Positions 15,168 through 56,991 of a stretch of DNA of 64,000 nt are shown piece by piece. The position numbers and the translations under genes are program-made. The notes beneath the pieces were generated by a model, which saw only the letters and a program-made list of their open reading frames with translations, made no database searches and was not told the origin of the DNA. Within the stretch, counting starts at the first letter, position 1; every line of letters starts with the position of its first letter. Source of the DNA: Mycobacterium gordonae (GTDB taxonomy: Bacteria; Actinomycetota; Actinomycetes; Mycobacteriales; Mycobacteriaceae); assembly GCF_017086405.1 (NCBI RefSeq), contig NZ_CP070973.1, positions 186,001 through 250,000 of the forward strand, in the 5' to 3' direction.

Positions 15168-15502
15168 GTCAGCCTGGTGGCCGAAGCCGAAGGGCCGACG
15201 CCGCGGCATTGCGGCGCTGGGGTGGCGCCGGAGTCTATCCGTAGAGAATTTCGAAGACGCTGTTGAGTGCGGCGCGGCAAACCGGTGGATCTGCGCGCCG
15301 GGACAGGTGCTGCCGGATCGCGAACTGTCCGCAGCTCAACTCGGTCGGACGGATGCCCCCGAAGAGTTCCAATCGTGCGGGAAAACGCAATGATCCCTTG
15401 CGGATTGGTGAAAAGGGGAAGTCGCGTCACCGCTGCAAATGTGATTGCGTGGACTCGCCCGAAGATGTTGCGCCACGAAAGCCCATGGCCGGGAGGCGAC
15501 GG
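15168..15502. other. Intergenic region between divergent Cys-repeat gene and PE_PGRS
   Basis: About 335 bases without a supported gene. It must hold the promoters of both divergent genes. A GGAGG ribosome site lies 7-8 nt before the PE_PGRS ATG at 15503. Short open frames here continue into neighbouring frames without coding character. No clear dyad was seen. Confidence 0.5.
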
Positions 15503-17069
15503 ATGTCGTTTGTCATTGCGGTGCCGGAGTCAGTGTCGGCGGCGGCCTCGGACCTGATGAATATCGGCTCGGCAATCAGCGAGGCGAACGCCGCCGCGTC
15601 GGCTCCCACGGCCGCCGTGGTCGCCCCAGGTGCCGACGATGTGTCGGCGGCCATCGCTGAGTTGTTCGGTGCACATGCTCAGGCGTACCAGGAAATCAGC
15701 GCTCGGGCCGCGGCGTTTCACAGCCAGTTCGTCCGCGTTATGAGTGCGGGTGCCGGAGCCTACGCGACAGCCGAAACCACGAACGCCGCACTGCAGAGGC
15801 TTCAGTTGGAGGTACTCACGGCCGTCAATGCGCCAACCTTGGTGCTGCTGAACCGTCCGCTGATCGGCAATGGCGCCGATGCCGCCCCACAATCCGGCGC
15901 CAATGGTGGCAACGGCGGATTGTTGTGGGGCAACGGCGGGAACGGCGGATCTGGCGGGGAGGGCCAGGCCGGCGGAAACGGCGGCGCCGCGGGTCTTTTC
16001 GGAAATGGTGGCGCCGGCGGGGCCGGCGGCTTCAGTACTAGTGGCGGAGACGGCGCTGCGGCCGGATCAGGCGGTGCCGGTGGCCTCTTGTGGGGGGCCG
16101 GCGGCAACGGGGGCGCCGGAGGGCCGGGCCGGGCTGGCGGGAGCGGCGGGGCGGGGGTCTGTTCGGTCGTGGCGGCGCCGGTGGTGCCGGCGGCGATTCG
16201 GTCAACATGGCCGGGGCGGGCGGTACCGGCGGCACGGGCGGATTGATCTTCGGCGCCGGAGGCGACGGTGGGGCAGGCGGGCAAGCCCTCAATGGCGCGG
16301 CCCCGGGAGCCGGCGGCACGGGCGGCTCGGCGGGACTGTTCGGCGCAGGCGGTGTCGGTGGTGTCGGTGGATCCTCGGGACCAAACCAAGGTCCCTACAT
16401 CGGGGGGCACGGCGGCGACGGCGGTGCGGGCGGCAAGATCTTCGGCCACGGAGGCACCGGCGGAGCGGGTGGCTCCGTCAACCCGCTGCCGGCGGACATG
16501 AGCACCCTCACCGGGGCAGGTGGTGACGGCGGAAACGGAGGAGCCGCTGGCCTTTTCGGCCTCGGCGGCGCCGGTGGTGCGGGCGGGTACGGGGGGTTTC
16601 AAACTGGGTCATCGCAAATTGGGTTGGCGGTGCCGGCGGCAACGGCGGGGCGGGCGGTTCGTTGATGGGTCTGGGCGGCACCGGCGGCGGCGGAGGCTTC
16701 GCGAACTACGGCGGGTCCGGGGGCGTGGGAGGGGCCGGCGGCCGGGTGTTCGGCGACGGCGGGGCCGGTGGCACGGGCGGCTGGGGCACCTTCTCCGGCG
16801 GAGATGGCGGCGCGGGAGGCGTCGGTGGCAACCTCACCGGCTCAGGCGGTAGCGGGGGCAGCGGCGGCAACGTCTTTGTGGGTGGGTTCGGAAACGCTGG
16901 GGCAGGCGGCGCCGGCGGCAGCGCCAAACTGCTCGGCAACGGCGGCAACGGAGGCAGCGGCGGGGCGGCCTTCAATGGTCCGGCGGCGGGCGGACCCAGC
17001 GGCTCCGGTGGGGCCGGGGGCCTGTGGTTCGGTAGCCCCGGGGTGCCCGGGTCTTCGACATTGAGCTGA
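15503..17069 (+). pseudogene. PE_PGRS gene broken by two frameshifts
   Basis: Starts with a normal PE domain ([17 protein letters not shown]) ending with YxxxE (YATAE) and [10 protein letters not shown], then Gly-rich repeats in one frame to about 16150. There the frame shifts at a five-G run (16153-16157): the old frame ends at 16246 in non-PGRS sequence while GGxGGx repeats continue in a second frame to 16665. A second shift at a six-G run (16591-16596) moves the repeats to a third frame ending at 17069 (PGSSTLS). In both cases one extra G would restore the frame. Restored, it would be about 520 residues. The shifts are either real inactivation or homopolymer sequencing errors. Confidence 0.85.
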
Positions 17070-17078
17070 AAGGTGTTG

Positions 17079-17099
17079 TCCTTGAACCCCTGTCAAGGA
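17079..17099. promoter_or_regulatory. Dyad upstream of the LysR gene
   Basis: Perfect 7-bp inverted repeat TCCTTGA / TCAAGGA with a 7-nt spacer, 62 nt before the LysR start and just after the PE_PGRS stop. Its core fits the LysR-type T-N11-A rule, so it may be an autoregulatory site; equally it could be a terminator of the PE_PGRS gene. Confidence 0.4.
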
Positions 17100-17160
17100 G
17101 CAGTCTCGTCGTCCGATCCGATCACTGACGGTGCCTGTCCGCGAAAGCCCGGTGATTTCC

Positions 17161-18153
17161 ATGGAGCTGTACCAACTTCGCTACTTCCAAGCGGTGGCCG
17201 AATGCGGCACGCTGCGGGATGCCGCCGACAGACTGCTGGTGTCCCAGTCCGCGGTCAGCCGTGCCATTGCCATTCTCGAGTCGGAAATCGGCGTCGAGCT
17301 GTTCACCCGGAGCGGTAGATCCAATGAACTGAATCGGTTCGGGCAGGTCTTCTTGCGGGCGAGTCTGAAAACTCAGCGCAACTTGGATGCCGCGGTCGAG
17401 GACGTGCGCCGGCTGGCAGGGGTGGACTCCGGAACGGTGGCGCTTGGATTTCTCGGTTCACTGGGCATCTCGACGGTGCCTCGGCTGATACGCCGTCACC
17501 GCGACCGCTATCCGGCGGCCCGGTTCGAGCTGCGCCAGGGCACCGGGCCAGGACTCGTCACCGACCTGGCAAACGGCGTCCTGGACGTATGCCTCAGTTA
17601 CCCAATGACATCCGACGACTCACCGGGTGTCGAGTGGCAGCAGTTGTTCACTCAGCAGTGGTGCGCGGTCGTTCACCGTGAACATCCGTCGGCCTGCCGC
17701 AAGCTGATCGGCTTCGAGGAGTTGGCCGGCGAACAGTTCGTGGTGTTGAACTCCGAACCCGCTCTGCGCCGCATCTTCGACGACGCGTGCATACGTCACC
17801 GGTTCACGCCGGCGATCGTTCTCGAAGGTACCGACGTGACGACGTTGCGGGGGCTGGTCAGGGCGCGGTTGGGTATCTCCGTGCTGCCGCGGGCGGCAAC
17901 CGCGTTGGCCGACACCATCGAGATCCCGATCGACGACCCGGAATTGATCAAGGTCGTTGCCATCGGATGGATGACCAATCGATACCTACCGCCGTCGGCA
18001 GCCGCCTTCCGAGACACCGCGATCGCTGCAGCCCGACGGTCGGCGTATCTACCCGGGCCGAACCGGACAGACGTCGGCACCTTGCTGAAGAAGGGCACCT
18101 CGGCGAAGAGGCCGGAGTGTGTCCACCGGCACCTGTTGGACGTGGCGCCCTAA
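17161..18153 (+). CDS. LysR-family transcriptional regulator
   Basis: 330 residues. The N-terminal winged HTH (MELYQLRYFQAVAECGTLRDA, then LLVSQSAVSRAIAILESEIGVELFTR) is canonical and fixes the ATG at 17161. The C-terminal periplasmic-binding-like domain begins near residue 90 (GTVALGFLGSLGISTVPRLI). LysR proteins bind T-N11-A dyads and respond to a small metabolite. It precedes a run of CoA and amino-ketone metabolism genes; dyads of the T-N11-A type recur in their intergenic regions (18420, 23665, 25393, 28241), so these are candidate targets. No divergent partner gene is present. Confidence 0.92.
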   Translation: MELYQLRYFQAVAECGTLRDAADRLLVSQSAVSRAIAILESEIGVELFTRSGRSNELNRFGQVFLRASLKTQRNLDAAVEDVRRLAGVDSGTVALGFLGSLGISTVPRLIRRHRDRYPAARFELRQGTGPGLVTDLANGVLDVCLSYPMTSDDSPGVEWQQLFTQQWCAVVHREHPSACRKLIGFEELAGEQFVVLNSEPALRRIFDDACIRHRFTPAIVLEGTDVTTLRGLVRARLGISVLPRAATALADTIEIPIDDPELIKVVAIGWMTNRYLPPSAAAFRDTAIAAARRSAYLPGPNRTDVGTLLKKGTSAKRPECVHRHLLDVAP

Positions 18154-18419
18154 TCGCTTTCGAAGTATGGGGCGTTGGAGAGGGCTGTCGACGGTGCGGC
18201 CGGGCCGCTGAACACCCCGAAACCAGTGTGGATACTCCATGTTTCGGGCCCGCTTGCCCGTCAAGCCAGGTGGCGTAGCCGGATTCGCGAGCGACTGGCC
18301 GAGGTGAACATCGTTGAACTCCGCGGCTGTCGGGACTGAGGGTGCACCGCACGCACCGTCGAGCAAACAGGCGTCGCAGCCGTCGCTCTCGACGAGAGGG
18401 GCGCTCGGACTCGCAAAAT

Positions 18420-18434
18420 TTGTGTGAGGCGCAA
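18420..18434. promoter_or_regulatory. Imperfect TTGC-N7-GCAA dyad (TTGTGTGAGGCGCAA)
   Basis: One-mismatch version of the dyad found at 23665, 25393 and 28241. It lies six bases before the 10-bp inverted repeat upstream of the PPE gene. It fits the T-N11-A form of LysR sites. Weak alone; its value is the recurrence. Confidence 0.3.
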
Positions 18435-18439
18435 CTTTT

Positions 18440-18472
18440 CGTTCGCAACCTTCTACTAGACCGTTGCGAACG
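18440..18472. promoter_or_regulatory. 10-bp inverted repeat upstream of PPE
   Basis: Perfect arms CGTTCGCAAC (18440-18449) and GTTGCGAACG (18463-18472) with a 13-nt spacer, 126 nt before the PPE start. Arm length and spacing suit a regulator operator better than a terminator, since no gene ends nearby except the LysR gene some 290 nt upstream. Confidence 0.5.
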
Positions 18473-18598
18473 GCGTTGCATAGCGTGAGTCGCCAGCGGG
18501 GTTACCGGCCGACTTCGGCGACGCCCCACAGGCAGATGGCGCTGTGGCTGACAAGGACTCGACCTGTCGGCGCAGCTCGTTGGATGGGTGAGGTCGTC

Positions 18599-20707
18599 GT
18601 GAACTTTTTCGTGCTACCGCCGGAGATCAACTCAGCTTTGATGTTCGCAGGGGCGGGGTCGGCTCCGATGACGGCCGCAGCGGATGCCTGGTGTGGGCTG
18701 GCCGACGATCTGCACTCGGCCGCACGCAGCTTCTCCTCGGTGACGCTCGGGCTCGTGGGCGAGTCCTGGCAGGGACCGTCGGCACAGGCGATGACGGGCG
18801 TGGCGCACACCTACGTCGGCTGGCTGAGCGCGGCGGCGGCGCAGGCCGAGCAGGCGGCAATTGGGGCCAACACCGTAGCCGCGGTGTTCGATGAGGCGCG
18901 TTCCGCTGTCGTGCATCCCGTCGTCGTGGCGTCGAATCGCTCCCAGCTGATCGCTTTGGTGGCGTCGAATCTGTTCGGACAGAACGCACCGGCTATCGCG
19001 GCCGCGGAGGCAACCTACGAGCAGCTCTGGGCTCAAGACGTCGCGGCCATGGCCGAATATCACGCTGCGGCGGCTGCCGCGATCGCGCCGCTGACTCCCT
19101 GGTACGTGACGCCGGAGGGTCTCTACATCAGCGTCGGCCAGATCGGGGGAACCATCAACATCACCCCGGGAAACGTCGGCGCGCTCAACCTCGGTCTCGG
19201 CAATGTCGGGGCGCTGAACCCCGGGTTCGGCAACAGCGGCAGCTACAACCTTGGCAGTGGCAACTTCGGGACGCTCAACCTCGGCAGCGGAAACGGCGCC
19301 TCGGGCAAGGGGAGTTCGGGGACTCCGCTTCCGGCCACCCTGAATCTCGGCAGCGGAAACCTGGGCAACTACAACCTGGGCAGCGGCAACCTCGGTGGGC
19401 TCAATCTCGGAAGCGGAAACGCCGGCGACGCCAACTTCGGACTCGGCAACCTCGGTAGTTCGAACCTCGGCAGCGGAAATCTCGGCAACTTGAACCTCGG
19501 CAGCGGCAATTGGGGCAGCCACAACCTGGGCAGCGGGAACACCGGTGATGGCAACTTCGGCCTGGGGAACACCGGCGACACCAACCTGGGGAGTGGAAAC
19601 ACGGGTTCCGCGAATGTTGGAAGCGGAAATCTGGGCAACGCCAATTTCGGTCTCGGCAATCTCGGCAGCAACAACATCGGGTTCGGCAACAAAGGCAACA
19701 ACAACATCGGTTTCGGACTGTCTGGCGACAACCAGGTCGGCATCAACTTCGCGGGTTTGAACAGCGGCTCCGGAAACATCGGCCTGTTCAACTCGGGCAC
19801 CAACAACATCGGCTTTTTCAACTCCGGCGACGACAACTGGGGCATCGCCAATTCCGGGGAGGGCGTGGGACCCCTCAGCCTCGAATTCGGCACGTCGGGC
19901 AAGTGGAACACCGGCATCGGCAACTCCGGATACCTGAACACCGGCCTGGGCAACTCCGGGAGTTACAGCACCGGGCTGTTCAACTCGGGATCCACCAACA
20001 CGGGATTCTTCAACTCGGGCACCACCAACACCGGTTTGTTCAATTCCGGTGCCACCAACACCGGCTTGTTCAACTCGGGTGCCACCAACACCGGGTTCTT
20101 CGACTCGGGCACCGCGAACTTCGGTAGCTTCAACGGCGGCAGCACAAACACCGGCGGCTTCAACGCCGGTGATATCAACACCGGCTACGGCAACTCCGGA
20201 GGCGTCAACACGGGAATTCTCAACGGCGGCAATCTCAACACCGGAGCCGTCAGCCCGTTCAATCAAGCCTTTGCCAACTCGGGATTCTCCAACGCGATCG
20301 ACGGAGAATTCGGCCGCGGCGGCTACAACCAGTCAGGGGTGGCGAATCAAGGCTTGAACAACTCAGGCATCGATTCCGCCGACAACATCGTCAGCATCAT
20401 CGGTGGCCAGGTCATCCAGGGCACCATCGGCTCCTCCGGCTTCGAGAACCACGGTAACTTCGGCTCCGGCTTCCTCAATTCGGGAGCTTTCAGCTCGGGT
20501 TTCAGAAACACCGGGCCGACCTACACCGGTCCGGCGAATATGTCCGGTTTCGGCAACAGCACCGGCCAATTCATATCCGGCTTCTTCAATGCCGGCACCC
20601 TCGCCGAGGGTGCCCTCGTTCAATTCAATTCGGGCATCGCGAACTTGGGCAACGAGGTGTCGGGCTTCTTCAATGCGCAGAACCAAGAGTCCGGAATTTT
20701 CCACTGA
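18599..20707 (+). CDS. PPE family protein, MPTR subfamily
   Basis: 702 residues. The PPE domain (1 to about 175) begins [19 protein letters not shown], contains the WxG turn ([12 protein letters not shown]) and the helical PPE core. After a linker ([18 protein letters not shown]) come MPTR repeats of the N-x-G-x-G-N-x-G form from about residue 190 to the end, first dominated by LNLGSGNLG units and later by FNSGxTNTG units. MPTR proteins depend on ESX-5 for export. No PE partner gene is adjacent. GTG 18599 begins at the conserved PPE N-terminus; upstream frame lacks homology. Confidence 0.94.
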
Positions 20708-46433: not shown

Positions 46434-47197
46434 TCAGCCTTGCATGTAGCCCCCGGCGTCGACCGGAATGGACTGGCCGGTGATGGTCCGGCTTTCGTCG
46501 CTGGCCAGAAACAAGGCCAGATTGGCGACATCGTCGGTCGTCGAAATTGCATGTAATGCAACGGCTTTGAGGGATCGTTCCCGGACCACCGCGCCGTCCA
46601 CCCCTTCCTCGCGCGCAATCCGCTCCACCCAGTTGCGGTACAGATCGGTGTCTATGCTGCCGGGCACGATGCAATTGCACCGGATGCCGTGCGGCCCCAC
46701 CTCGAGTGCCACTGCCTTGGTGAAGGCGCGCAACGACGCCTTGGCGGTGACGTAGTGAGGGACGCCGTGGAGGAGAAATTGAGGATGACGCCGGATCGGC
46801 GCTGCAGCATCGACTGCAGCAGAACGTGTTTTGTGCACAGCATCGCGGCCGTGACGTCGATGGCGATGGTTGAGTTCCAGTTGTCGAGCGTCTGCTCCCA
46901 CACCCACTTGTCCTGGCCCGGCGCCGCGGCACTGTTGCAGAGGATGTCAACGTGTCCGAATGCCTCCACGGTGCGGGACACCAGTGCTGTCACGTCGTCT
47001 TCACTGGTGACGTCCGCGCGAACGGCGATGGCGTTCGGACCGGCCTCCTTCGCAGCCTCGCGCACCAGTTCTTCGCGCCGGGCCGCCAGCATGACCCGGG
47101 CGCCTTCCCGGGTGAAGGTGGCGCCCATGGTTCGCCCGAGACCGGCGCTGGCTCCGGTTATGATCGCCACCTTGCCCGCCAGGCGTCCTTCTGTCAC
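46434..47197 (-). pseudogene. Short-chain dehydrogenase/reductase, frameshifted
   Basis: The N-terminal two thirds (KVAIITGASAGLGRTMGATF with the TGxxxGxG cofactor motif, ILCNSAAAP, VILNFSSTAS with the catalytic Ser) read in one frame; the rest (VPHYVTAKASLRAFTKAVAL with YxxxK, then TGQSIPVDAGGYMQG) reads in another. The switch occurs at about 46758-46766, where GGCGTCCCT is present once. Joined, the protein would be about 250 residues, normal for an SDR. As written the frame ends early, so it is probably inactive. Confidence 0.8.
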
Positions 47198-47281: not shown

Positions 47282-50200
47282 ATGGGACTCGCCCGACTTT
47301 TCCTGGAATGGCCCGTCGTCCGGCAATTGAGGTCCGGGGACGGACTTGGCCGCGGTCTGGCGGTGACCTCCAAGCACACCCGCGCCATCACCCCGCGCAC
47401 CACGACCGCCGACCGGGTGGTGCAGAGCATCTGCCCGTACTGTGCGGTTGGCTGTGGGCAGAAGGTCTACGTCAAGGACGAGAGGGTCGTGCAGATCGAG
47501 GGTGACCCCGACTCGCCGATATCCCGCGGCCGGCTGTGCCCCAAAGGCTCGGCCAGCGAACAACTCGTCAACTCCCCGGGCCGGCAGATGAAGGTCCTCT
47601 ACCGCGCGCCCGGCGCCACCGAATGGAAACCGCTTGAGCTCGACCGGGCGATCGACATGGTCGCCGACCGATTCGTCGAAGCTCGCCGGCACGCCTGGCA
47701 GGACATCGACAAGCACGGTCATCCACTCCGGCGCACCATGAAGATCGCCGCGTTGGGCGGCGCCACGCTGGACAACGAAGAGAACTACATCATCAAGAAA
47801 CTCTTCACCGCCGCAGGCGCGATCCAGATCGAAAACCAAGCCCGTATTTGACACTCCGCCACGGTTCCCGGTCTGGGAACCTCCCTCGGGCGCGGCGGCG
47901 CCACCCAATCACTGCAAGACATGGCCAATGCGGACTGCATTGTCATACAGGGCTCCAACATGGCCGAGTGCCACCCCGTCGGCTTCCAGTGGGTGGAAGA
48001 GGCTAAGGCCCGCGGCGCCAAGCTGATTCACGTCGACCCACGCTTCACCCGCACCTCGGCCGTGTCCAACAAACACATCCCGATCCGGGCGGGATCCGAT
48101 GTTGTGCTGCTCGGCGCGTTGATCAACTACGTGATCGCCCACGACCTCTGGTTCAGGGAATACGTGCTGGCCTACACCAACGCCGCCACCTTGATCAACG
48201 AAAACTACCGTGACAGCGAGGATTTGGGCGGGCTGTTCTCCGGCTTCGATCCGGAGACGGGCCAGTACGACATCTCCACGTGGGCGTACGCGGGACAAGA
48301 AGGCGCCGATGATCCCGAACACGGGGCCAGCGCGTCGGCCCGCGCCGCGGGTGATGCGCACGGCAGCGGCGGCCCGCCGTTGCCGCACGCCCGCGTCCAG
48401 CGCGACGAGACATTGCAGCACCCGCGCTCGGTGTTCCAGATTCTCAAGCGGCACTACGCGCGCTACACCCCGGAGATGGTGCGCGACGTCTGTGGGATCA
48501 GTGTCGAGGACTTCGACTACCTCGCCCGTGCCGTCACCGAAAACTCCGGCCGCGAACGCACCACCTGCTTCGCTTACGCGGTGGGCTGGACCCAGCACAC
48601 GCTCGGAGCCCAATTCATCCGCACCGCAACGATTCTGCAGCTGTTGCTGGGCAACATCGGGCGGCCCGGCGGCGGCATCATGGCGCTGCGCGGGCACGCC
48701 ACCATCCAGGGCTCCACCGACATCCCCACGTTGTTCAACCTGCTGCCCGGCTACCTGTCCATGCCGAAGGCCGGCGTGCACGACACCTACCAGCAGTACA
48801 TCGAGGCGGTCGGCCCGAAGAACCAGAAGGGCTTCTGGGCCAACGCCGACAGCTACATGGTGAGCCTGCTCAAGGCATGGTGGGGCGATGCCGCCCGCGA
48901 AGACAACGACTGGGCCTACGACTACCTGCCGCGCCTGTCCGGCCCGCACGGCACCTATCAAACGGTCATGTCGATGCTCGAAGACGAGGTCGACGGCTAC
49001 TTCCTGCTGGGCCAGAACCCTGCCGTCGGATCGGCGCACGGCCGCATGCAGCGTATGGGCATGTCGCACCTGAAGTGGCTGGTGGTGCGCGACCTGAATT
49101 TGATCGAGTCGGCCACCTTCTGGAAGGACGGCCCCGAGATCGCCTCCGGCGAACTCAAGACCGAAGAGATCGACACCGAGGTGTTCTTCTTCCCGGCGGC
49201 CACCCATGTCGAGAAGGCAGGCTCGTTCACCCAGACCCAACGGTTGGTGCAGTGGCGGCACCAGGCCGTCCAGCCGCCCGGTGACTGCCAGAGCGAACTG
49301 CAGTTCTTCGTCGAGCTGGGCAAGCGCATCAGGCAGCGACTGGCCGGCTCGACCGACGAGCGTGACCGCCCGCTGCTCGATCTGACCTGGGACTACCCCA
49401 CCGACGAACACGGCGAACCAGACTCCACGGCGGTGCTGGCCGAGATCAGCGGCTGCTACCTGACCGGGCCAAAGGCGGGTCAGCCGGTACCGGGTTACAC
49501 CGAACTGGCCGCCGACGGATCGACGGCCTGCGGATGCTGGATCTACTCGGGGGTATACGCCGACGGGGTCAACCAGGCCGCGCGCCGGGTACCGCTCGGC
49601 GGCCCGAGTCCGAGTCAGTCGGAATGGGGCTGGGCCTGGCCGGCCGACCGGCGCATCCTCTACAACCGCGCTTCGGCCGATCCGGACGGCAACCCGTGGA
49701 GCGAGCGCAAACGCTACATCTGGTGGGACGCTCAGCACCGGCGCTGGGTGGGGGATGACGTGCCCGACTTCCCCGTCGACCGCGCCCCCGAGGTTCGCCC
49801 CGATCCGGACGTCGGCGGGCCGGACGCATTGGCCGGCGATGACCCGTTCATCATGCAGGCCGACGGTAAGGCGTGGCTGTTCGCGCCCAAGGGCCTCGTG
49901 GACGGACCGTTGCCCACGCACTACGAGCCGCAGGAGTCGCCGGTGGCCAATGCGCTGTACCCGCAGCAGCAGAGCCCGTCGCGAATCATGTTCCCGCGCA
50001 AAGACAATCTGTTTGCACCCAGTGCCGGCGAGGCCGGCGACGACGTGTACCCCTACGTGTTCACCACCTATCGGCTCACCGAACACCACACCGCGGGCGG
50101 GATGAGCCGCTGGTTGCCGTACCTGGCCGAGCTGCAGCCGGAGATGTTCTGCGAGGTGTCCCCGGAGCTGGCCGCCGAACGCGGCCTGGAGCCCTACGGC

Positions 50201-50569
50201 TGGGCGACGATCGTGTCGCCGCGGGCGGCGATCGAGGCCAAGGTGCTCGTCACCGAACGGATGCGACCGCTGGTGATCGGCGGGCACACCATCCACCAGA
50301 TCGGGTTGCCGTACCACTGGGGTGTGGGCAGCGACGCCGTGGTGAGCGGCGACGCGGCCAACGACCTGCTCGGGGTGGTGCTGGACCCGAACGTGCAGAT
50401 TCAGGAGTCCAAGACCGGATCCTGTGACATCCGCCCGGGCCGGCGGCCACAGGGGGACGAGTTGTTGCGCCTGATCGAGGAGTACCAGTCGCGTGCGGGG
50501 GTAACCGTCGAGACGGACAATGTCCGCTTGACGACGTCCGAACCACACATTCCGCGACGGGAGGGCTGA
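47282..50569 (+). CDS. fdnG: Formate dehydrogenase alpha subunit, selenoprotein (Sec at in-frame TGA)
   Basis: 1095 residues if TGA 47849-47851 is read as selenocysteine (residue 190). N-terminal [4Fe-4S] motif CPYCAVGCG plus LCPKG; Sec context NQARI-U-HSATVPGLG matches FdnG of E. coli (NQARV-U-HG). Downstream are molybdopterin motifs (GSNMAECHPVGFQWVEEAKA, DPRFTRTSAVSN, GWTQHTLGAQFIRTA, GRPGGGIMALRGHATIQGST) and the C-terminal dinucleotide-binding domain (TYRLTEHHTAGGMSRWLPYL). It oxidises formate to CO2. No twin-arginine signal is seen, so it may act at the inner membrane face. A SECIS hairpin follows the TGA. The stop overlaps the beta-subunit start (TGATG). Confidence 0.95.
47849..47851 (+). 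other. UGA selenocysteine codon
   Basis: In-frame TGA at residue 190 of the alpha subunit, in the position where formate dehydrogenases carry the Mo-ligating Sec. The reading frame continues unbroken for 905 further codons with full homology, so it is recoding rather than a stop. Confidence 0.93.
47852..47881 (+). promoter_or_regulatory. SECIS element
   Basis: Eleven nt after the TGA begins GGTTCCCGGTCTGGGAACC (47863-47881): a perfect 7-bp stem with loop GGTCT. E. coli fdhF has the same 11-nt distance and the same GGUCU in its loop. This is the site SelB must bind on the mRNA. Confidence 0.92.
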
Positions 50570-51513
50570 TGGCGCAGCGCGAGGGTTGGCCGGATCCGAA
50601 GCCGCGCAAGGGCTTTTTCACCGATACCTCCATCTGCATCGGCTGTAAGGCATGCGAGGTGGCCTGCAAGGAGTGGAACCGCAACCCGCGCGACGGTGAC
50701 CTGGAGATACTGGGCTCGTCCTACGACAACACCGGACACCTGGGCGCCAGCACCTGGCGGCACGTCGCGTTCATCGAACAAGGCTCGGAGCGCATCGAGC
50801 AGGCCCGTGAATCAGGGCGTGCCCTGGTGGGCCTGGGCATGCCGTCCGTGGCCGGGGCCCCCGAAGCCCTGGACACCACTCCACCCGATACGCCCGAGTT
50901 CCGCTGGCTGATGGCCTCGGACGTGTGCAAGCACTGCACCCACGCCGGCTGCCTTGACGTCTGCCCGACGGGCGCGCTGTTCCGCACCGAATTCGGCACC
51001 GTCGTGGTGCAGGACGATGTCTGCAACGGGTGCGGTACCTGTGTGGCCGGCTGTCCGTTCGGTGTCGTGGAGCGCCGCAGCGATGGCACCTACGCGACCC
51101 CGGCGAAGCGGTCAGAACGTCCCGAACATGGCTTCGTGACGGGAGTGGCCCAAAAATGCACGCTCTGCTATGACCGGCTGCTCGCAGACCAGACGCCCGC
51201 GTGCGCCCAGACCTGTCCGACCACATCGATCAAGTTCGGCGACCACGACGATCTCGTCGCCCAGGCCCGCGACCGGGTCGCCGCGCTGCACGCCGAGGGC
51301 ATGACCGAAGCGCGCCTCTACGGCGCCAACGAGCACGATGGCGTCGGTGGCACCGGCTCGGTCTTCCTGCTCCTCGACGAGCCCGAGGTGTACGGGCTGC
51401 CGCCGGACCCGCGGGTATGCACGGCGGATCTGATGACCATGTTCAAGCGGGCCGGGGTGGCCGCCGCGGGGATGTTCGCCGCCGGCGCGCTGGCCTTTTG
51501 GCGGGGCCGGTGA
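50569..51513 (+). CDS. fdxH: Formate dehydrogenase beta (iron-sulfur) subunit
   Basis: 314 residues. Four ferredoxin-type Cys clusters: CIGCKACEVACKEWN (23-37), CKHCTHAGCLDVCPTGAL, CNGCGTCVAGCPFGV, and CTLCYDRLLADQTPACAQTCP, coordinating four [4Fe-4S] centres that pass electrons from the alpha subunit to the membrane. A single hydrophobic C-terminal helix (VAAAGMFAAGALAFWRG) anchors it. Starts in TGATG overlap with fdnG; its stop overlaps the next gene in GTGA. Confidence 0.94.
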   Translation: MAQREGWPDPKPRKGFFTDTSICIGCKACEVACKEWNRNPRDGDLEILGSSYDNTGHLGASTWRHVAFIEQGSERIEQARESGRALVGLGMPSVAGAPEALDTTPPDTPEFRWLMASDVCKHCTHAGCLDVCPTGALFRTEFGTVVVQDDVCNGCGTCVAGCPFGVVERRSDGTYATPAKRSERPEHGFVTGVAQKCTLCYDRLLADQTPACAQTCPTTSIKFGDHDDLVAQARDRVAALHAEGMTEARLYGANEHDGVGGTGSVFLLLDEPEVYGLPPDPRVCTADLMTMFKRAGVAAAGMFAAGALAFWRGR

Positions 51514-52583
51514 GCACCTCCGAGTACGACAGCCTGCGGCCGCCGTCGGGCTCGGGTGGCAAGCGCCACCGGGGCGGCGACGGTAAGCGGCGCCGTCGCG
51601 ACGAGTCGTTGATGGTGCCGGATGCGGAGTTCTCGTCCTATTACGGGCGCCCGGTGGTCAAGCCGGCGCCCTGGGGTCACGAGGTCGCCGCGTATCTGTT
51701 CCTCGGCGGGGTGGCCGGCGGATCCGGCCTGTTGGCCGCCGGTGCTCAGCTGACCGGACGAAAAGTGTTGCGCCGCAACACCAGGCTCGCCGCGCTGGGT
51801 GCGGTGATGCTGGGCGCGGTCGCGCTGGTCATGGACTTGGGCCGGCCCGAACGGTTCGTCAACATGTTGCGCACCTTCAAGCTGACCTCACCCATGAGCG
51901 TCGGCTCCTGGATTCTCAGCTTCTTCAGCGCGGGCATCGGGGTGGCCGCGGCGTCCGAGGTCGACCGGATGACCGGCGAGCGCCTGCCCCTCGGTCCGCT
52001 GCGGCCCGTGCTGCGCGCCATGGAGGGACCGGCCGGTCTGGAGGCCGCCCTGTTCGCTCCGCCACTGGCGGTGTACACAGCAGTGTTGTTGTCCGACACC
52101 GCAACCCCGACGTGGAACGCCGCCCACAAGGACCTGCCTTTCGTCTTCGTCAGCTCCGCGAGCCTGGCCGCATCGGGTCTGGCGATGATCACCACCCCGG
52201 TCGCCGAAGCCGGGCCGGCCCGCCGGTTGGCTGTCATCGGCGCGGTGAGCGACCTGATCTCCGCCCGGGTCACGGAGTACCGGATGGACCCGGTGACGAG
52301 AGAACCGCTGCACCAGGGCAGACCCGGCCGACTGCTGCAGTGCAGTGAAATACTCGCCGCCGCCGGCGGTCTGGGCGCTCTCCTCGGAGGCGGGCGCCGC
52401 GGTGTGGCCGCCCTCTCCGGTGTGGCACTACTGACGGCGTCGGCGATGTTGCGGTTCGGATTCTTCGAAGCCGGCCTGGAATCGGCGCGCGATCCCCGCT
52501 ACACGATCGAGCCGCAGAAGCGCCGGTTGGCGAAGCGTCGGGCTGCTGGGCTCACCGACGACTCGATCACCAGTGCTGGTTGA
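51510..52583 (+). CDS. nrfD: NrfD/PsrC-type membrane subunit of formate dehydrogenase
   Basis: 357 residues. A basic, Gly-rich cytoplasmic N-terminus of about 60 residues is followed by about eight TM helices starting HEVAAYLFLGGVAGGSGLLA, with DLGRPERFVNMLRTFKLTSP after TM2, the NrfD-family signature. It replaces the cytochrome b gamma subunit of E. coli FdnI and should transfer electrons to menaquinone. GTG 51510 overlaps the beta stop. Convergent with selD, 6 nt apart. Confidence 0.9.
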   Translation: MSTSEYDSLRPPSGSGGKRHRGGDGKRRRRDESLMVPDAEFSSYYGRPVVKPAPWGHEVAAYLFLGGVAGGSGLLAAGAQLTGRKVLRRNTRLAALGAVMLGAVALVMDLGRPERFVNMLRTFKLTSPMSVGSWILSFFSAGIGVAAASEVDRMTGERLPLGPLRPVLRAMEGPAGLEAALFAPPLAVYTAVLLSDTATPTWNAAHKDLPFVFVSSASLAASGLAMITTPVAEAGPARRLAVIGAVSDLISARVTEYRMDPVTREPLHQGRPGRLLQCSEILAAAGGLGALLGGGRRGVAALSGVALLTASAMLRFGFFEAGLESARDPRYTIEPQKRRLAKRRAAGLTDDSITSAG

Positions 52584-52589
52584 AGCCGG

Positions 52590-53561
52590 TTACCGGATTT
52601 CGATACCGCTGCCCGCCACGGTGTGGCCGATGACCGGGTAACCCGGTAGCTCGCCGACCACCAACAGCCCGCCGGAGGTTTGGGCGTCGGCCAGCAGCAG
52701 CAGGTCGTCTTCGATGACATCCGAGGCGGTTCGCAGGTGGGGCCGCACCCAGTCGAGATTGCGCCGGGTGCCGCCCGAGACGAACCCGTCGTCCAGGGCT
52801 GCGCGGGCCGCCTCGAGCACGGGCACCGCGGCGCGGTCGAGGACGGCGCCGACGCCGGAGGCCCGGCACATTTTGTGCAGATGCCCCAGCAGCCCGAATC
52901 CGGTGACGTCGGTGGCCGCTCGGACGCCAGCCCTGAGTGCCGCCTCGGACGCATCGCGGTTGAGCCGGGTCATGAGGTCGATTGACTCCGGGCAGATCTC
53001 ACCGGTCTGCTTGTGCCGGTTGTTGAGCAGGCCGACGCCCAGCGGTTTGGTGAGGGTCAGCGGCAGACCCGGCTCGGCTGCGTCGTTGCGGAGCAATTTC
53101 GTGGGGTCGGCCACGCCGGTGACGGCCATCCCGTACTTGGGTTCCGGGTCGTCGATGGAGTGGCCGCCGATGACCGGGCAGCCGGCCTGCGAGGCCACCG
53201 CCAGCCCGCCGCGCAGCACCTCCGTCATCAATTCCAGCGGCAGGGTGTCGCGTGGCCACCCGACGAGGTTGATTGCGACCACCGGGCGCCCGCCCATCGC
53301 GTAGATGTCGGACAGCGCGTTGGCGGCGGCGATGCGCCCCCAGTCGTAGGCGTCGTCGACGACCGGGGTGAAGAAGTCCGCGGTGGACAGCACCGCCAGG
53401 TCGCCGACCAGGACAGCGGCCGCGTCGTCACCGTCGTCGAGGCCGACCAGCACATCGGGCCCGGACTGGCCGGTCAGCCCGCGCACCGCCTCCTCGAGTT
53501 CGCCGGGTGGGATTTTGCAGGCACAGCCCCCGCCGTGCGCGTAGCCGGTGAGCCGCGTCAT
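52590..53561 (-). CDS. selD: Selenide, water dikinase (selenophosphate synthetase)
   Basis: 323 residues. Makes selenophosphate from selenide and ATP for SelA. N-terminal HGGGCACKIPP carries the catalytic Cys13 (Sec in some organisms) and Lys16. ATP/metal sites: LVGLDDGDDAAAV, LSTADFFTPVVDDAYDWGRI, AAANALSDIYAMGGRP, and late ATDVTGFGLLGHL and GGLLV segments, all standard. ATG 53561 starts at the family N-terminus. It is on the strand opposite to fdn and selA/selB but enclosed by them. Confidence 0.95.
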   Translation of the reverse strand: MTRLTGYAHGGGCACKIPPGELEEAVRGLTGQSGPDVLVGLDDGDDAAAVLVGDLAVLSTADFFTPVVDDAYDWGRIAAANALSDIYAMGGRPVVAINLVGWPRDTLPLELMTEVLRGGLAVASQAGCPVIGGHSIDDPEPKYGMAVTGVADPTKLLRNDAAEPGLPLTLTKPLGVGLLNNRHKQTGEICPESIDLMTRLNRDASEAALRAGVRAATDVTGFGLLGHLHKMCRASGVGAVLDRAAVPVLEAARAALDDGFVSGGTRRNLDWVRPHLRTASDVIEDDLLLLADAQTSGGLLVVGELPGYPVIGHTVAGSGIEIR

Positions 53562-53766
53562 GGCCCGAGCGTACGTGGCCCGCGTGGCGCTACCTGGTGT
53601 CGCTGCAAGGTTGGCAGACCGAATGCCCCGATCTCCAGAGCTGCTGGGGCAGCAGTGCCTGTTCATGTCCGTCACACTGGCCAGCGACAATCCCCGGCTC
53701 AGTCGACGCGCGAACCGCCCACCTCAGCGCGGCAACGCCACCGCACCCACCCGGTACGTTTACCGG

Positions 53767-53859
53767 GGAGGCGTTTGGGTTCCTGGTGGTCCCCCCGGTC
53801 TTCAAAACCGGTGAGATCGAGCATCTCGGTCTGGCGGGTTCGATTCCCGTCCGCCTCCG
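53767..53859 (+). tRNA. selC: tRNA-Sec (UCA)
   Basis: 93 nt. Acceptor GGAGGCG pairs with CGCCTCC (53852-53858), discriminator G. Anticodon stem CCGGT/ACCGG encloses CTTCAAA with anticodon TCA at 53802-53804. The long variable arm has a 5-bp stem GAGAT/ATCTC (53813-53827). T arm has TTCGATT loop at 53839-53845. Long extra arm, UCA anticodon and position upstream of selA identify it. The eighth acceptor pair looks mismatched (T74/C51 in local count), a minor deviation. Confidence 0.95.
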
Positions 53860-53899
53860 CTTTTGCTTCAAAGAGTGAAAGCCCACCGAGAGAGGTCAC

Positions 53900-55204
53900 G
53901 TGACGCAGGTCGACCCGCGCCGATTGATTCCGCGCACCGATCAGTTGTTGGCCCGTCCTGCTGTGCAGGAGCAGCGAGAAAGGCTGGGCGACAAGGCGAT
54001 TCGCGCAACGATTCGCGACATCCAGGAGCAGGCCCGCCGCGGCGATCTGGGGCCCGACCGGGTACCAGAGGCCCTCGAACAGGCCCTGGCCGCCCAGGCC
54101 ACCACCTCGTTGCGGCCGGTGCTCAACGCCACCGGCGTCGTCGTGCACACCAATCTCGGCCGCGCTCCGTTGGCCGCGGGCGCGGTAGCGGCTCTGATCA
54201 CGGCCGGCGGCTACGTCGACGTCGAACTCGACCTCACCACCGGCACCCGCTCCAAGCGCGGTGTCGCACTGCGGGAGACACTGCTCGACGCGTGCCCGGC
54301 AGCCGAGGATGCCCTCGTCGTCAACAACGGCGCCGCCGCCCTGGTTCTGGCGACCACCGCGCTGGCCGCCGGCAAGGAAGTGATCATCAGCCGCGGGGAG
54401 CTCATCGAGATCGGCGCCGGCTTCCGGCTGCCCGATTTGATCGCCTCCACCGGAGCGCGACTGCGCGAAGTCGGAACCACCAACCGCACCCATCCGCGCG
54501 ACTACGAGGCAGCGCTGAGTCCGGAAACCGGCTGCGTGCTCAAGGTGCACCAGAGCAACTTCCGCGTGGAAGGGTTCACGGCCGCCGCTTCCCTCACCGA
54601 CCTGCACACCCTGACCACGAACCAGCAGATCCCGTTGATCGCCGACCTCGGTAGCGGGTTACTCGAGCCGGACCCGCTGCTGCCCGAGGAGCCCGACGCC
54701 GCCGGCGCGCTCACCGAGGGCGCCGACCTCGTCATCGCGAGCGGCGACAAACTGCTCGGCGGACCACAGGCCGGCATCATCCTCGGCCGCGCCGAGCTAA
54801 TCACCGTGCTCGCGCGGCATCCGCTGGCCCGGGCCGTCCGAGCCGACAAACTCACCCTGGCCGCCCTCGAGGCGACGGTGCGCGCCGGCGGCTCCCCGGT
54901 GACCGCGGCGCTGCACGCCGACAACGACCGGTTGCGTTCCCGGGCGCAGCGGCTGGCAGAGGCCGTCGGGGCGACGGTGGTGGCCCACGACGGCCGGGTG
55001 GGCGGCGGGGGTGCCCCCGGCGTGCCGCTGCCGGGGTGGGCGGTCCGCCTGCCCGAGTCGACCGCCGCGCTGCTGCGGGTCGGCGAACCCGCGGTGCTGC
55101 CCCGAGTTCACGACGGCGCCTGCCTACTGGACCTGCGCTGCATTCCCGAGGCCGACGACGACCGCGTGCTGGCCGCCGTACGCTCGGCGCTGGGACAGCC
55201 CTGA
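53900..55204 (+). CDS. selA: L-seryl-tRNA(Sec) selenium transferase
   Basis: 434 residues, PLP-dependent, converts Ser-tRNA(Sec) to Sec-tRNA(Sec) with selenophosphate. N-terminal domain RRLIPRTDQLLARPAVQEQR, then LRPVLNATGVVVHTNLGRAPL, NNGAAALVLATTALAAGKEV, ISRGELIEIGAGFRLPDLI, VLKVHQSNFRVEGF, PLIADLGSGLL, and the PLP lysine in ASGDKLLGGPQAG. Full length for bacterial SelA. GTG 53900 is preceded by GAGAGAGG. It follows selC by 40 nt and its stop is 11 nt before the likely selB start. Confidence 0.95.
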   Translation: MTQVDPRRLIPRTDQLLARPAVQEQRERLGDKAIRATIRDIQEQARRGDLGPDRVPEALEQALAAQATTSLRPVLNATGVVVHTNLGRAPLAAGAVAALITAGGYVDVELDLTTGTRSKRGVALRETLLDACPAAEDALVVNNGAAALVLATTALAAGKEVIISRGELIEIGAGFRLPDLIASTGARLREVGTTNRTHPRDYEAALSPETGCVLKVHQSNFRVEGFTAAASLTDLHTLTTNQQIPLIADLGSGLLEPDPLLPEEPDAAGALTEGADLVIASGDKLLGGPQAGIILGRAELITVLARHPLARAVRADKLTLAALEATVRAGGSPVTAALHADNDRLRSRAQRLAEAVGATVVAHDGRVGGGGAPGVPLPGWAVRLPESTAALLRVGEPAVLPRVHDGACLLDLRCIPEADDDRVLAAVRSALGQP

Positions 55205-55215
55205 GCACTCACGTC

Positions 55216-56991
55216 GTGGCCACCGCAGGCCACGTGGACCACGGCAAGAGCACCCTCATCCACGCGCTTACCGGCATGGAGCCCGACCGCTGGGAGGAGG
55301 AGCGGCGCCGTGGCCTGACCATCGACCTCGGCTTCGCCTGGACCACCCTGCCGTCCGGCCGCAAAGTCGCCTTCGTCGACGTACCCGGCCACCACCGATT
55401 CCTGAGCAACACGCTGGCCGGCCTCGGCCCGGCACCGGTGGTGTGTTTCGTCGTCGCTGCCGACGAGGGCTGGCAGGCGCAGTCCGATGACCACCGCGAT
55501 GCCGTTGCGGCGCTGGGCATTCGGCACGGCCTCATCGTGATCACCCGCGCCGACCGGGCGCCGGAGCGCGGCGCCGAGGTGCTGGCGCAGGCCCGGGCCG
55601 AGTTGGCCGAAACGGGCTTACGCAGCGCGCCGGGCGTCATCGTGTCGGCCGTCGAGGGCACCGGGCTCGCCGAGTTGCGCGCCGCCCTTGACGGAGTCCT
55701 GGCGCAGGTCCCCGCGCCGGAGACCACTGCCCGGGTGCGGCTGTGGGTGGACCGTTCCTTCACCATCACCGGCGCCGGCACCGTGGTGACTGGCACGCTG
55801 CCGGCGGGAACGCTGGCCGTCGGTGACCGACTGGAACTGTTGGGCGCGTCGCGCACCAGGTCGGCGACGATCCGCGGGTTGCAGAGCTGTGGGCAGCCCT
55901 ACCCCACACTCGGACCGGTGGCGCGAGTGGCGCTGAACCTGCGCGGCGTAGCGCGCGACGCCGTCCGCCGTGGCGACCCGCTGATCACCCCGGACGCGTG
56001 GCCGCACACCCGGCTGCTCGACGTGCGGCGCACCTTCGGCGGGTCGTGGAACGAGACGCCGACGCATCTCGTCGCCCATGTCGGCACGGCCGCCGTGCCG
56101 GTGCGGCTGCGGCCGTTCGACGACGATCATGGCCGGCTCACCCTGGACCGATGGCTGCCGCTGGTGCTCGGTGACCGGCTGGTGCTGCGTGACCCCGGCA
56201 GCGCACGGGTGCTCGGTGGCGCGCAGGTGCTCGATGCCGAACCGCCCGCTTTGCGCCGGCGCGGCGACAGCGCCCGCCGCGCCGCCGCCCTGGCGCAGTC
56301 GGGGCCGGGCGGCGATGTCGAGGCTGAGGTCGAGCGCCGTGGAGCGGTGCGGGAGACTCAGCTGCTCCGCCTGGGACTGCTGCCGCATACCGTGCCCGCG
56401 CCGATACTGGTTTTCGACGGTTGGTGGGTGCACCGCCCGACACACCAGGCGTGGCAGCAGCGGCTCCGGACTGCCATTGAGGAGTTGCACGCGCGAGACC
56501 CCTTGGTGGACGGCATGTCCCGAGGTGCCGCCCGTGATCTGCTGGCGCTGCCGGACGAAAACCTGCTCGATGACGTCGTCCGTGCTGCCGGCCTCGAGCA
56601 GCAGGGGGGCAGCATCCGGGTGCCCGGTGCGCGCAGCCTCCCAGGCGGCGCCGAAGCGTCGGTGAGCGAGTTGGAGACCAGGCTGCGAGCCGAGCCGTTC
56701 CGGGCACCCGAAGCCTACGAACTGCAGGCGCTGAAGCTCGGCACCCGGGAACTGGCGGCCGCCGAACGCGCCGGGCGGCTGCTGAGGTTGCGCGACGGCG
56801 TGGTGCTGCTGCCGGATTCACCCGCGCTGGCGATGCGCGCTCTTGCCACGCTCGACCAGCCCTTCACCACAAGTCAAGCGCGCCAGGTGCTTAACACCAC
56901 CCGGCGGGTCGCGATTCCGCTACTCGAACACCTCGATGCACGCGGCTGGACCCGCCGGCTCGATGCGGGTCACCGCGAAGTCGTGCGTTGA
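55216..56991 (+). CDS. selB: Selenocysteine-specific elongation factor
   Basis: 591 residues. EF-Tu-like GTPase: G1 GHVDHGKST (5-13), RRRGLTIDLGFAW switch, G3 DVPGHHRF, G4 region ITRAD. Domains II and III follow (WVDRSFTITGAGTVVTGTLPAG), then the SelB-specific winged-helix modules (for example LEQQGGSIRVPGAR, FTTSQARQVLNTTRRVAIPLLEHLDARGWTRR) that bind the SECIS RNA. GTG 55216 gives MATAGHVDHGK; a CTG at 55201 overlapping the selA stop as CTGA would add five residues matching the usual HVVATAGH start and should be considered. Confidence 0.94.
   Translation: MATAGHVDHGKSTLIHALTGMEPDRWEEERRRGLTIDLGFAWTTLPSGRKVAFVDVPGHHRFLSNTLAGLGPAPVVCFVVAADEGWQAQSDDHRDAVAALGIRHGLIVITRADRAPERGAEVLAQARAELAETGLRSAPGVIVSAVEGTGLAELRAALDGVLAQVPAPETTARVRLWVDRSFTITGAGTVVTGTLPAGTLAVGDRLELLGASRTRSATIRGLQSCGQPYPTLGPVARVALNLRGVARDAVRRGDPLITPDAWPHTRLLDVRRTFGGSWNETPTHLVAHVGTAAVPVRLRPFDDDHGRLTLDRWLPLVLGDRLVLRDPGSARVLGGAQVLDAEPPALRRRGDSARRAAALAQSGPGGDVEAEVERRGAVRETQLLRLGLLPHTVPAPILVFDGWWVHRPTHQAWQQRLRTAIEELHARDPLVDGMSRGAARDLLALPDENLLDDVVRAAGLEQQGGSIRVPGARSLPGGAEASVSELETRLRAEPFRAPEAYELQALKLGTRELAAAERAGRLLRLRDGVVLLPDSPALAMRALATLDQPFTTSQARQVLNTTRRVAIPLLEHLDARGWTRRLDAGHREVVR

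What the first reader, a model, noticed from the sequence alone, without database searches (positions are those of the whole stretch)
47282..56991. Complete selenocysteine system with its selenoprotein in a mycobacterium
fdnG (Sec), its two partner subunits, selD, selC, selA and selB all lie within 9.7 kb. Seen: in-frame TGA with full homology on both sides, SECIS hairpin, tRNA with UCA anticodon and long variable arm, and all three Sec enzymes. Known: these four sel genes suffice for bacterial Sec insertion. To my knowledge M. tuberculosis lacks them. The compact arrangement, with the only visible client next to the machinery, suggests a unit that is gained or lost as a whole.
Basis: partly seen in the sequence, partly recalled or inferred. 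Interest (0 to 1): 0.85.

Follow-up and report, generated by a model that had tools for sequence, protein, structure and literature searches.

The report
Mycobacterial selenocysteine unit with swappable machinery
This mycobacterium carries, in one 9.7-kilobase block, the four genes for making and inserting selenocysteine next to the formate dehydrogenase gene that they are predicted to serve; such blocks are common in the genus and already known, but in 37 of 171 related genomes the same kind of enzyme gene sits with a distantly related version of the machinery, so enzyme and machinery can likely be re-paired.

Summary
In detail: fdhA with one in-frame TGA, an Fe-S subunit, an NrfD-type anchor, selD, selC, selA and selB lie at 47282-56991, and a 7-pair hairpin with a GGUCU loop follows the TGA. 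It is not rare: 171 of 396 genomes of the genus have a strong tRNA-Sec, and all 171 have this FDH; 203 of 298 genomes of the order have SelA. Sec-FDH and selA of M. marinum are in print (PMC3434033), and so is such a cluster in Corynebacterium (PMC2830990). 'Gained or lost as a whole' is half true. Complete units sit on two plasmids. But the genus holds two diverged units, I (window) and II, and they have been re-paired: 59 genomes I+I, 72 II+II, 37 FDH-I with sel-II, one FDH-II with sel-I, 2 without SelB. Conflicting trees, a shared insertion site and one SECIS core in 77 of 77 loci support this. selA/selB look broken in three genomes that keep fdhA. That the UGA is read as Sec was not tested by experiment. 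The enzyme is not E. coli-type FDH-N.

The parts
47282..50569 (+). fdhA, formate dehydrogenase alpha subunit (type I), 1095 residues read through one in-frame TGA
   Evidence: tree
47849..47851 (+). in-frame TGA, predicted selenocysteine codon (context QARI-U-HSATVPGLG)
   Evidence: 160 of 160 relatives keep a TGA
47863..47881 (+). SECIS hairpin core: 7-bp stem, GGUCU loop
   Evidence: Rfam SECIS_3 47846-47904 sub-threshold
50569..51513 (+). fdhB, 4Fe-4S electron-transfer subunit with a weakly hydrophobic C-terminal stretch
51510..52583 (+). nrfD-like membrane anchor subunit
   Evidence: Pfam PF03916 70.7 bits
52590..53690 (-). selD, selenophosphate synthetase (start codon uncertain; HMM match begins at residue 46)
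   Evidence: TIGR00476
53767..53860 (+). selC, tRNA-Sec, anticodon TCA
53900..55204 (+). selA, selenocysteine synthase
55204..56991 (+). selB, Sec-specific elongation factor (start not determined; HMM match begins at about 55213)
   Evidence: TIGR00475
56988..58271 (+). right neighbour, MASE7 adenylate/guanylate cyclase, not part of the unit
   Evidence: flank shared with G006
46652..47197 (-). left neighbour, short-chain dehydrogenase, not part of the unit

Best explanation
The block encodes a complete selenocysteine system (selC, selA, selB, selD) beside a formate dehydrogenase operon whose in-frame UGA, followed by a conserved hairpin, is predicted to be read as selenocysteine. Inferred from the families: SelD would make selenophosphate, SelA would turn seryl-tRNA-Sec into selenocysteyl-tRNA-Sec, and SelB would bring it to the ribosome at the UGA marked by the SECIS. 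The product would be a Mo/W-pterin formate dehydrogenase with Sec at the metal, likely facing the cytoplasm and passing electrons through the Fe-S subunit and the NrfD-like anchor to quinone. In evolution the block behaves as two linked modules, client operon and sel block, that usually occur together but have been re-paired between two diverged versions in this genus; the re-pairing was likely possible because both versions carry the same SECIS core.
For: Family matches and tRNA; SECIS constraint in 77 of 77 mycobacterial Sec loci; co-occurrence 171 of 171; TGA kept in 160 of 160; pairings 59/72/37/1. FdhA trees put the hybrids inside type I; SelA trees put them inside type II, AU p 1.5e-53 against grouping five of them with type I. 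Four hybrids examined share one chromosomal site; its flanks lie side by side in 7 of 10 other genomes fetched.
Against: No expression, 75Se or protein evidence. The Rfam SECIS match is below its gathering score. The rpoB tree does not show the hybrids as one clade (AU p 2.3e-4), so a single re-pairing event is not shown. Cytoplasmic placement rests only on the lack of a hydrophobic N-terminus.
Confidence: 0.9

Rival explanations
1. The fdhA gene is a pseudogene with a real stop at the TGA, and the sel genes serve some other selenoprotein.
For: No protein evidence. In some relatives fdhA or sel genes look broken (G246 and G342 fdhA in two frames; G097, G134, G100 selA/selB in pieces).
Against: TGA in 160 of 160 relatives with sel genes, with homology on both sides; SECIS codons frozen in 77 of 77 loci; 0 of 171 genomes with a strong tRNA-Sec lack the FDH.
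Confidence: 0.03
2. The unit moves only as a whole: every fdh-sel pair in the genus was inherited or transferred as one block.
For: Co-occurrence; complete units on plasmids; loss of both selA and fdhA/B in the M. ulcerans ancestor (PMC3434033 passages).
Against: 37 FI.SII and 1 FII.SI genomes; conflicting FdhA and SelA trees; G100 has a hybrid-type sel block with FDH-II at the hybrid site.
Confidence: 0.05
3. The hybrids arose by transfer of one pre-assembled FDH-I + sel-II cassette into the shared site, not by re-pairing inside a mycobacterium.
For: The four hybrids examined sit at the same site, whose flanks are joined in relatives; one sel clade, support 97.
Against: Hybrid FdhA (group A) is nested among mycobacterial type-I FdhA, beside a group with G132 and G031 (support 84) that also lie near hybrids on rpoB; none of the loci fetched from outside the genus pairs FDH-I with sel-II.
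Confidence: 0.3

Closest known systems
Sec-decoding trait with fdhA cluster (Zhang 2006, PMC1794560; Peng 2016, PMC5029168; passages read)
   Same: selA-selB-selC near a single fdhA; horizontal transfer of the set.
   Different: Zhang writes that the data support transfer only with co-transfer of a selenoprotein gene; here, whatever arrived together, client and machinery were later re-paired.
Corynebacterium aurimucosum fdnG-fdxH-selD-selA-selB region (PMC2830990; passages read)
   Same: Sec-FDH clustered with selABD and selC; the Corynebacterium loci fetched here (other species) have the window's gene order.
   Different: FdhA of those Corynebacterium loci is 63-66% identical to the window's.
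M. marinum MMAR_5190 and MMAR_5194/5195 (PMC3434033; passages read)
   Same: selA and Sec-FDH in a mycobacterium, lost in the M. ulcerans ancestor.
   Different: The passages list gene loss; selB has no occurrence in the text.
E. coli FDH-N (FdnGHI, PDB 1KQF)
   Same: alpha subunit aligned over residues 45-1045.
   Different: No N-terminal signal, NrfD-like anchor instead of cytochrome b, beta below the FDH-beta cut-off.

Membership tests
Bacterial Sec-decoding trait | SelA, SelB, SelD homologues over curated cut-offs | tested here: met
Bacterial Sec-decoding trait | tRNA-Sec with UCA anticodon | tested here: met
Bacterial Sec-decoding trait | SECIS hairpin directly after the UGA | tested here: met
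   77 of 77 mycobacterial Sec loci keep stem and loop; the Rfam match is sub-threshold
Bacterial Sec-decoding trait | Sec actually inserted | not testable with these tools
   needs 75Se labelling or mass spectrometry
FDH-N (FdnGHI) | alpha subunit over TIGR01553 cut-off | tested here: met
   931 vs 814.2 bits
FDH-N (FdnGHI) | Tat signal peptide, periplasmic alpha (Tat recalled; the periplasmic side is stated in PMC7759655, passages) | tested here: not met
   no hydrophobic segment before the first Cys motif; over 99 FdhA N-termini (aligned parts only, relatives included) the highest 17-residue mean hydropathy is 0.55; 12 of 99 have an RRx[FLIVM] match
FDH-N (FdnGHI) | cytochrome b gamma subunit FdnI (recalled) | tested here: not met
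   NrfD-like protein instead
Actinobacterial formate dehydrogenase NF041513 | over curated cut-off | tested here: met
   1926 vs 1400 bits

The most novel reading that the evidence does not exclude
Selenocysteine machinery and its client are interchangeable modules in nature: in mycobacteria a Sec formate dehydrogenase has been handed from one sel machinery to another with about 59% (SelA) and 50% (SelB) identity, and the reverse pairing also exists, because both machineries read the same SECIS.
Probability: 0.75. Interest if true: 0.62.

Novelty: new member of a known kind. Interest (0 to 1): 0.45.

Why it matters
The window itself is an ordinary, well-kept example of a Sec-FDH unit. Its value is as one corner of a natural experiment: four pairings of two FDH operons and two sel machineries in one genus. 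They bear on the question whether Sec machinery and selenoprotein genes must move together, and they make SelB-SECIS cross-compatibility directly testable with natural pairs. The insertion site with joined neighbours in relatives, and the genomes with broken selA/selB, show gain and possible loss step by step.

Tried and rejected
Rejected: rarity of the trait. Sec-to-Cys conversion of the resident enzyme: the 7 Cys-FDH loci seen (from a capped listing) form a separate clade; 5 of those 7 genomes lack a strong tRNA-Sec and 2 (G138, G197) have it together with a Sec copy. Whole-operon exchange among hybrids: hybrid groups A and B differ most in the interior of fdhA in all four A/B pairs compared. 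In two of them (G017/G326, G051/G284) fdhB and nrfD stay at the level of the flanks; in the other two (G268/G282, G001/G223) they are also somewhat lower, and in one A/A control (G038/G325) nrfD is low at 0.80, so the tracts are not fully mapped. I read this as recombination in and around fdhA.

Led nowhere or weak: no sel-I remnant was seen in hybrid loci outside their one sel block (flanks of four hybrids, where a 29-residue SelB-I-like hit at the edge of the G282 piece is the selB tail itself), and no FDH-II remnant beyond selB in those four. The N|B interval of the window's own genome holds 2.7 kb without sel or fdh remnant. One search is discarded: five rpoB loci were turned the wrong way; one search replaces it. 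Results against a tidy story: hybrids are not one clade on rpoB (AU p 2.3e-4); FdhA of 21 hybrids as one clade is rejected at p 0.014, which I put down to the fdhA tracts; support for the group-A placement is only 84; FdhA of G143 and G234 does not sit where their rpoB does.

Rows dropped: L048 and L189; L183, L193, L198, L181, L186 and L206; L048, L189, L180, L182, L184, L179, L181, L198; type-I and type-II rows thinned; rows with short or missing genes left out by length in the tree calls (selA of G199 and G246 and selB of G265 missing). The first SECIS count (62 loci) held two genomes twice; one search recounts without them and with the later loci. Count caveats: my hand lists give 178 FDH genomes (partial ones included) and 171 tRNA-Sec genomes; the tool tallies 173 and 172 over cut-off. 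The 172nd appears to be G369 (E 1.1e-8), which has no FDH over cut-off and no SelA match.
Full report
WHAT IS THERE. The block 47282-56991 reads fdhA, fdhB, nrfD, selD (minus strand), selC, selA, selB. fdhA is split by one TGA at 47849-47851; read through it, the protein matches NF041513 with 1926 bits over residues 7-1071. The residue context is QARI-U-HSATVPGLG. selD, selA and selB pass the curated equivalog cut-offs; selC is found by ARAGORN and Rfam. The hairpin GGUUCCC-GGUCU-GGGAACC starts after 11 intervening bases; Rfam SECIS_3 matches it below its gathering score (26 of 63 bits, E 0.0004). The window is part of a 7.32-Mb two-contig genome; FdhA and SelA place it next to M. gordonae.

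IS IT MORE THAN CHANCE. In some searches Sec genomes of the genus were searched with the window's FdhA; all 160 have a match that contains a TGA (two, G138 and G197, also have a Cys copy). In 77 of 77 mycobacterial Sec loci whose site was found (31 FI.SI, 27 FI.SII, 17 FII.SII, 1 FII.SI, 1 with sel out of view; no two alike over 900 bases) the seven stem pairs and the loop are intact and GTT CCC GGT CTG does not vary even at synonymous sites; one further locus, L030, starts after the site. In 3 type-I loci the first stem pair is A-U instead of G-C. The 7 Cys homologues form 3 to 6 of the pairs and vary at those codons. In order relatives the Val codon and the loop do vary somewhat.

HOW COMMON. 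Family NF041513 is over cut-off in 173 of 396 genomes of the genus, RF01852 in 172 of 396, TIGR00474 in 163 of 396. By hand lists, 171 genomes have a strong tRNA-Sec, all 171 have the FDH, 163 a full and 6 a partial SelA; G097 and G118 have none (G118 ends at a contig edge). Seven FDH genomes lack a strong tRNA-Sec: five with Cys-FDH (G004, G053, G093, G145, G152) and two fragmentary cases (G086, G293). One further tRNA match over cut-off, apparently G369, is weak and comes without this FDH and SelA. In the order sample, genus included, 203 of 298 genomes have SelA over cut-off. So Sec is common here. It is in print for M. marinum, with loss in the M. ulcerans ancestor (PMC3434033, passages), and such a cluster is in print for C. 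aurimucosum (PMC2830990, passages).

TWO UNITS IN ONE GENUS. Type I (the window) runs fdhA-fdhB-nrfD-selD(-)-selC-selA-selB and is shared in order with the Kocuria and Corynebacterium loci fetched. Type II runs selD(-)-selC-selA-selB-fdhA-fdhB-nrfD and is shared with G510 of the order. Between the types, mean identity is 64% for FdhA, 59% for SelA and 50% for SelB. Over the 171 genomes the pairings are: FI.SI 59, FII.SII 72, FI.SII 37, FII.SI 1, no SelB 2 (from for 160 genomes, from fetched loci for 10, and the window). G097 and G118, without SelB, have FDH-I with a type-II selD. Fragments of SelB were typed by identity too, which is less sure for about a dozen draft genomes.

THE RE-PAIRED LOCI. 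The hybrids fetched carry the type-I FDH operon (all three genes) with type-II sel genes. In the FdhA trees they lie inside mycobacterial type I. In the SelA trees they lie inside type II: forcing five hybrids together with type I costs 252 log units, AU p 1.5e-53, and the 21 hybrids of the larger set form one clade with support 97. G275 is the reverse: FDH-II (L217) and a type-I sel block with its tRNA (L218), about 4.6 Mb apart along one 5.58-Mb contig, or about 1 Mb if that contig is a circle; on rpoB it is sister to G085, a II+II genome, 97/97.

THE SITE. Flanks of four hybrids (G223, G282, G337, G260) match each other over 12-17 kb on both sides and match none of the type-I flanks compared (G132, G031, G143, G006, window). 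Of ten other genomes fetched (58 of 59 searched had the selB-side flank), seven have the two flanks side by side with 7 to 128 bases between the matches: type-I genomes G132, G143, G234 and Sec-less genomes G046, G131, G103, G048. The other three do not: the window's own genome (2.7 kb between, no sel or fdh remnant), G029 (the near part of the nrfD-side flank is missing) and G026 (no match to it). So the hybrid block is most simply an insertion. G100 sits inside the hybrid group on rpoB and has at the same site a hybrid-type selD, fragments of hybrid-type selA and selB, and FDH-II on the far side of selB. The client therefore changed while the sel block stayed, or an ancestor held both clients; I cannot tell which.

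LINKAGE AND DECAY. In 28 single-contig genomes with both places listed, 26 keep fdhA and selC within 15 kb and 2 (G073, 636 kb; G195, 24 kb) do not; for 11 other single-contig Sec genomes on my hand list one or both places were cut from the listings. selA and selB are in pieces or partly missing in G097, G134 and G100 while fdhA with its TGA remains; these may be decay or assembly faults. Among the hybrids, two fdhA alleles (groups A and B) cut across the species: rpoB and the sel genes agree with each other and fdhA does not. The difference is greatest in the interior of fdhA in four of four A/B pairs, with fdhB and nrfD near flank level in two of them, as recombination in and around fdhA would give.

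MOBILITY. Complete type-I units, tRNA included, lie on a Tsukamurella tyrosinosolvens plasmid (238,675 bp, typed non-mobilizable) and on the conjugative Arthrobacter plasmid pYA7-1a (129,773 bp), there next to a Tn3-family transposase. These two are the only plasmid records at 60% SelA identity or more, of 159 records with a match.

HOW IT WORKS. Shown by sequence: parts, order, constraint on the SECIS, co-occurrence. Inferred from the known families: Sec synthesis by SelD and SelA, insertion by SelB at the SECIS, formate oxidation at a Mo/W site. Also inferred: a cytoplasmic catalytic subunit (the window's ORF has no longer N-terminus, and no hydrophobic stretch before the first Cys motif; for relatives only the aligned part was read) and electron transfer to quinone through the NrfD-like anchor. 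The usual name fdnG suggests E. coli FDH-N, but two of its features are not met. The SECIS identity is my explanation for why machineries could be exchanged; it was not tested.

NOVELTY. Clustering of fdhA with sel genes and their joint transfer are known (PMC1794560 and PMC5029168, passages). Zhang et al. write that their data support the idea that Sec decoding is transferred only together with a selenoprotein gene. I saw no report of re-pairing of client and machinery in the listings or the passages read; these cover only the held open-access library. A 2026 review (PMC13188914, passages) does not mention mycobacteria. The window is thus a new member of a known kind; the genus-wide re-pairing is the part worth following.

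Noticed in passing
L140-L146 (G004, G053, G093, G152, G145, G197, G138): A Cys-containing FDH operon of a separate clade; five of these seven genomes have no strong tRNA-Sec, and in G138 and G197 it coexists with a Sec FDH of type II. The SECIS hairpin is not kept.
   Followed up: partly
L115 (G097), L116 (G134), L114 (G100): selA and selB in pieces or partly missing while fdhA-TGA, selD and selC remain: possible first step of loss of the trait, or assembly faults.
   Followed up: partly
G253, G246, G342: fdhA with an extra TAG (G253) or in two frames (G246, G342); possible decay of the client, or sequencing errors.
   Followed up: no
hybrid loci, e.g. L201 against L220: Two fdhA alleles cut across species; the divergent tract is centred on the interior of fdhA, while sel genes follow rpoB.
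   Followed up: partly
window 47282-47420: The alpha subunit has no recognisable signal peptide although it is usually named fdnG; likely a cytoplasm-facing enzyme with an NrfD-like anchor.
   Followed up: partly
L200 (Arthrobacter pYA7-1a), 15351-18968: A Tn3-family transposase and a recombinase lie directly downstream of selB on a conjugative plasmid that carries the whole type-I unit.
   Followed up: no
G369: A weak tRNA-Sec match (E 1.1e-8) in a 3.2-Mb genome without this FDH over cut-off and without a SelA match.
   Followed up: no
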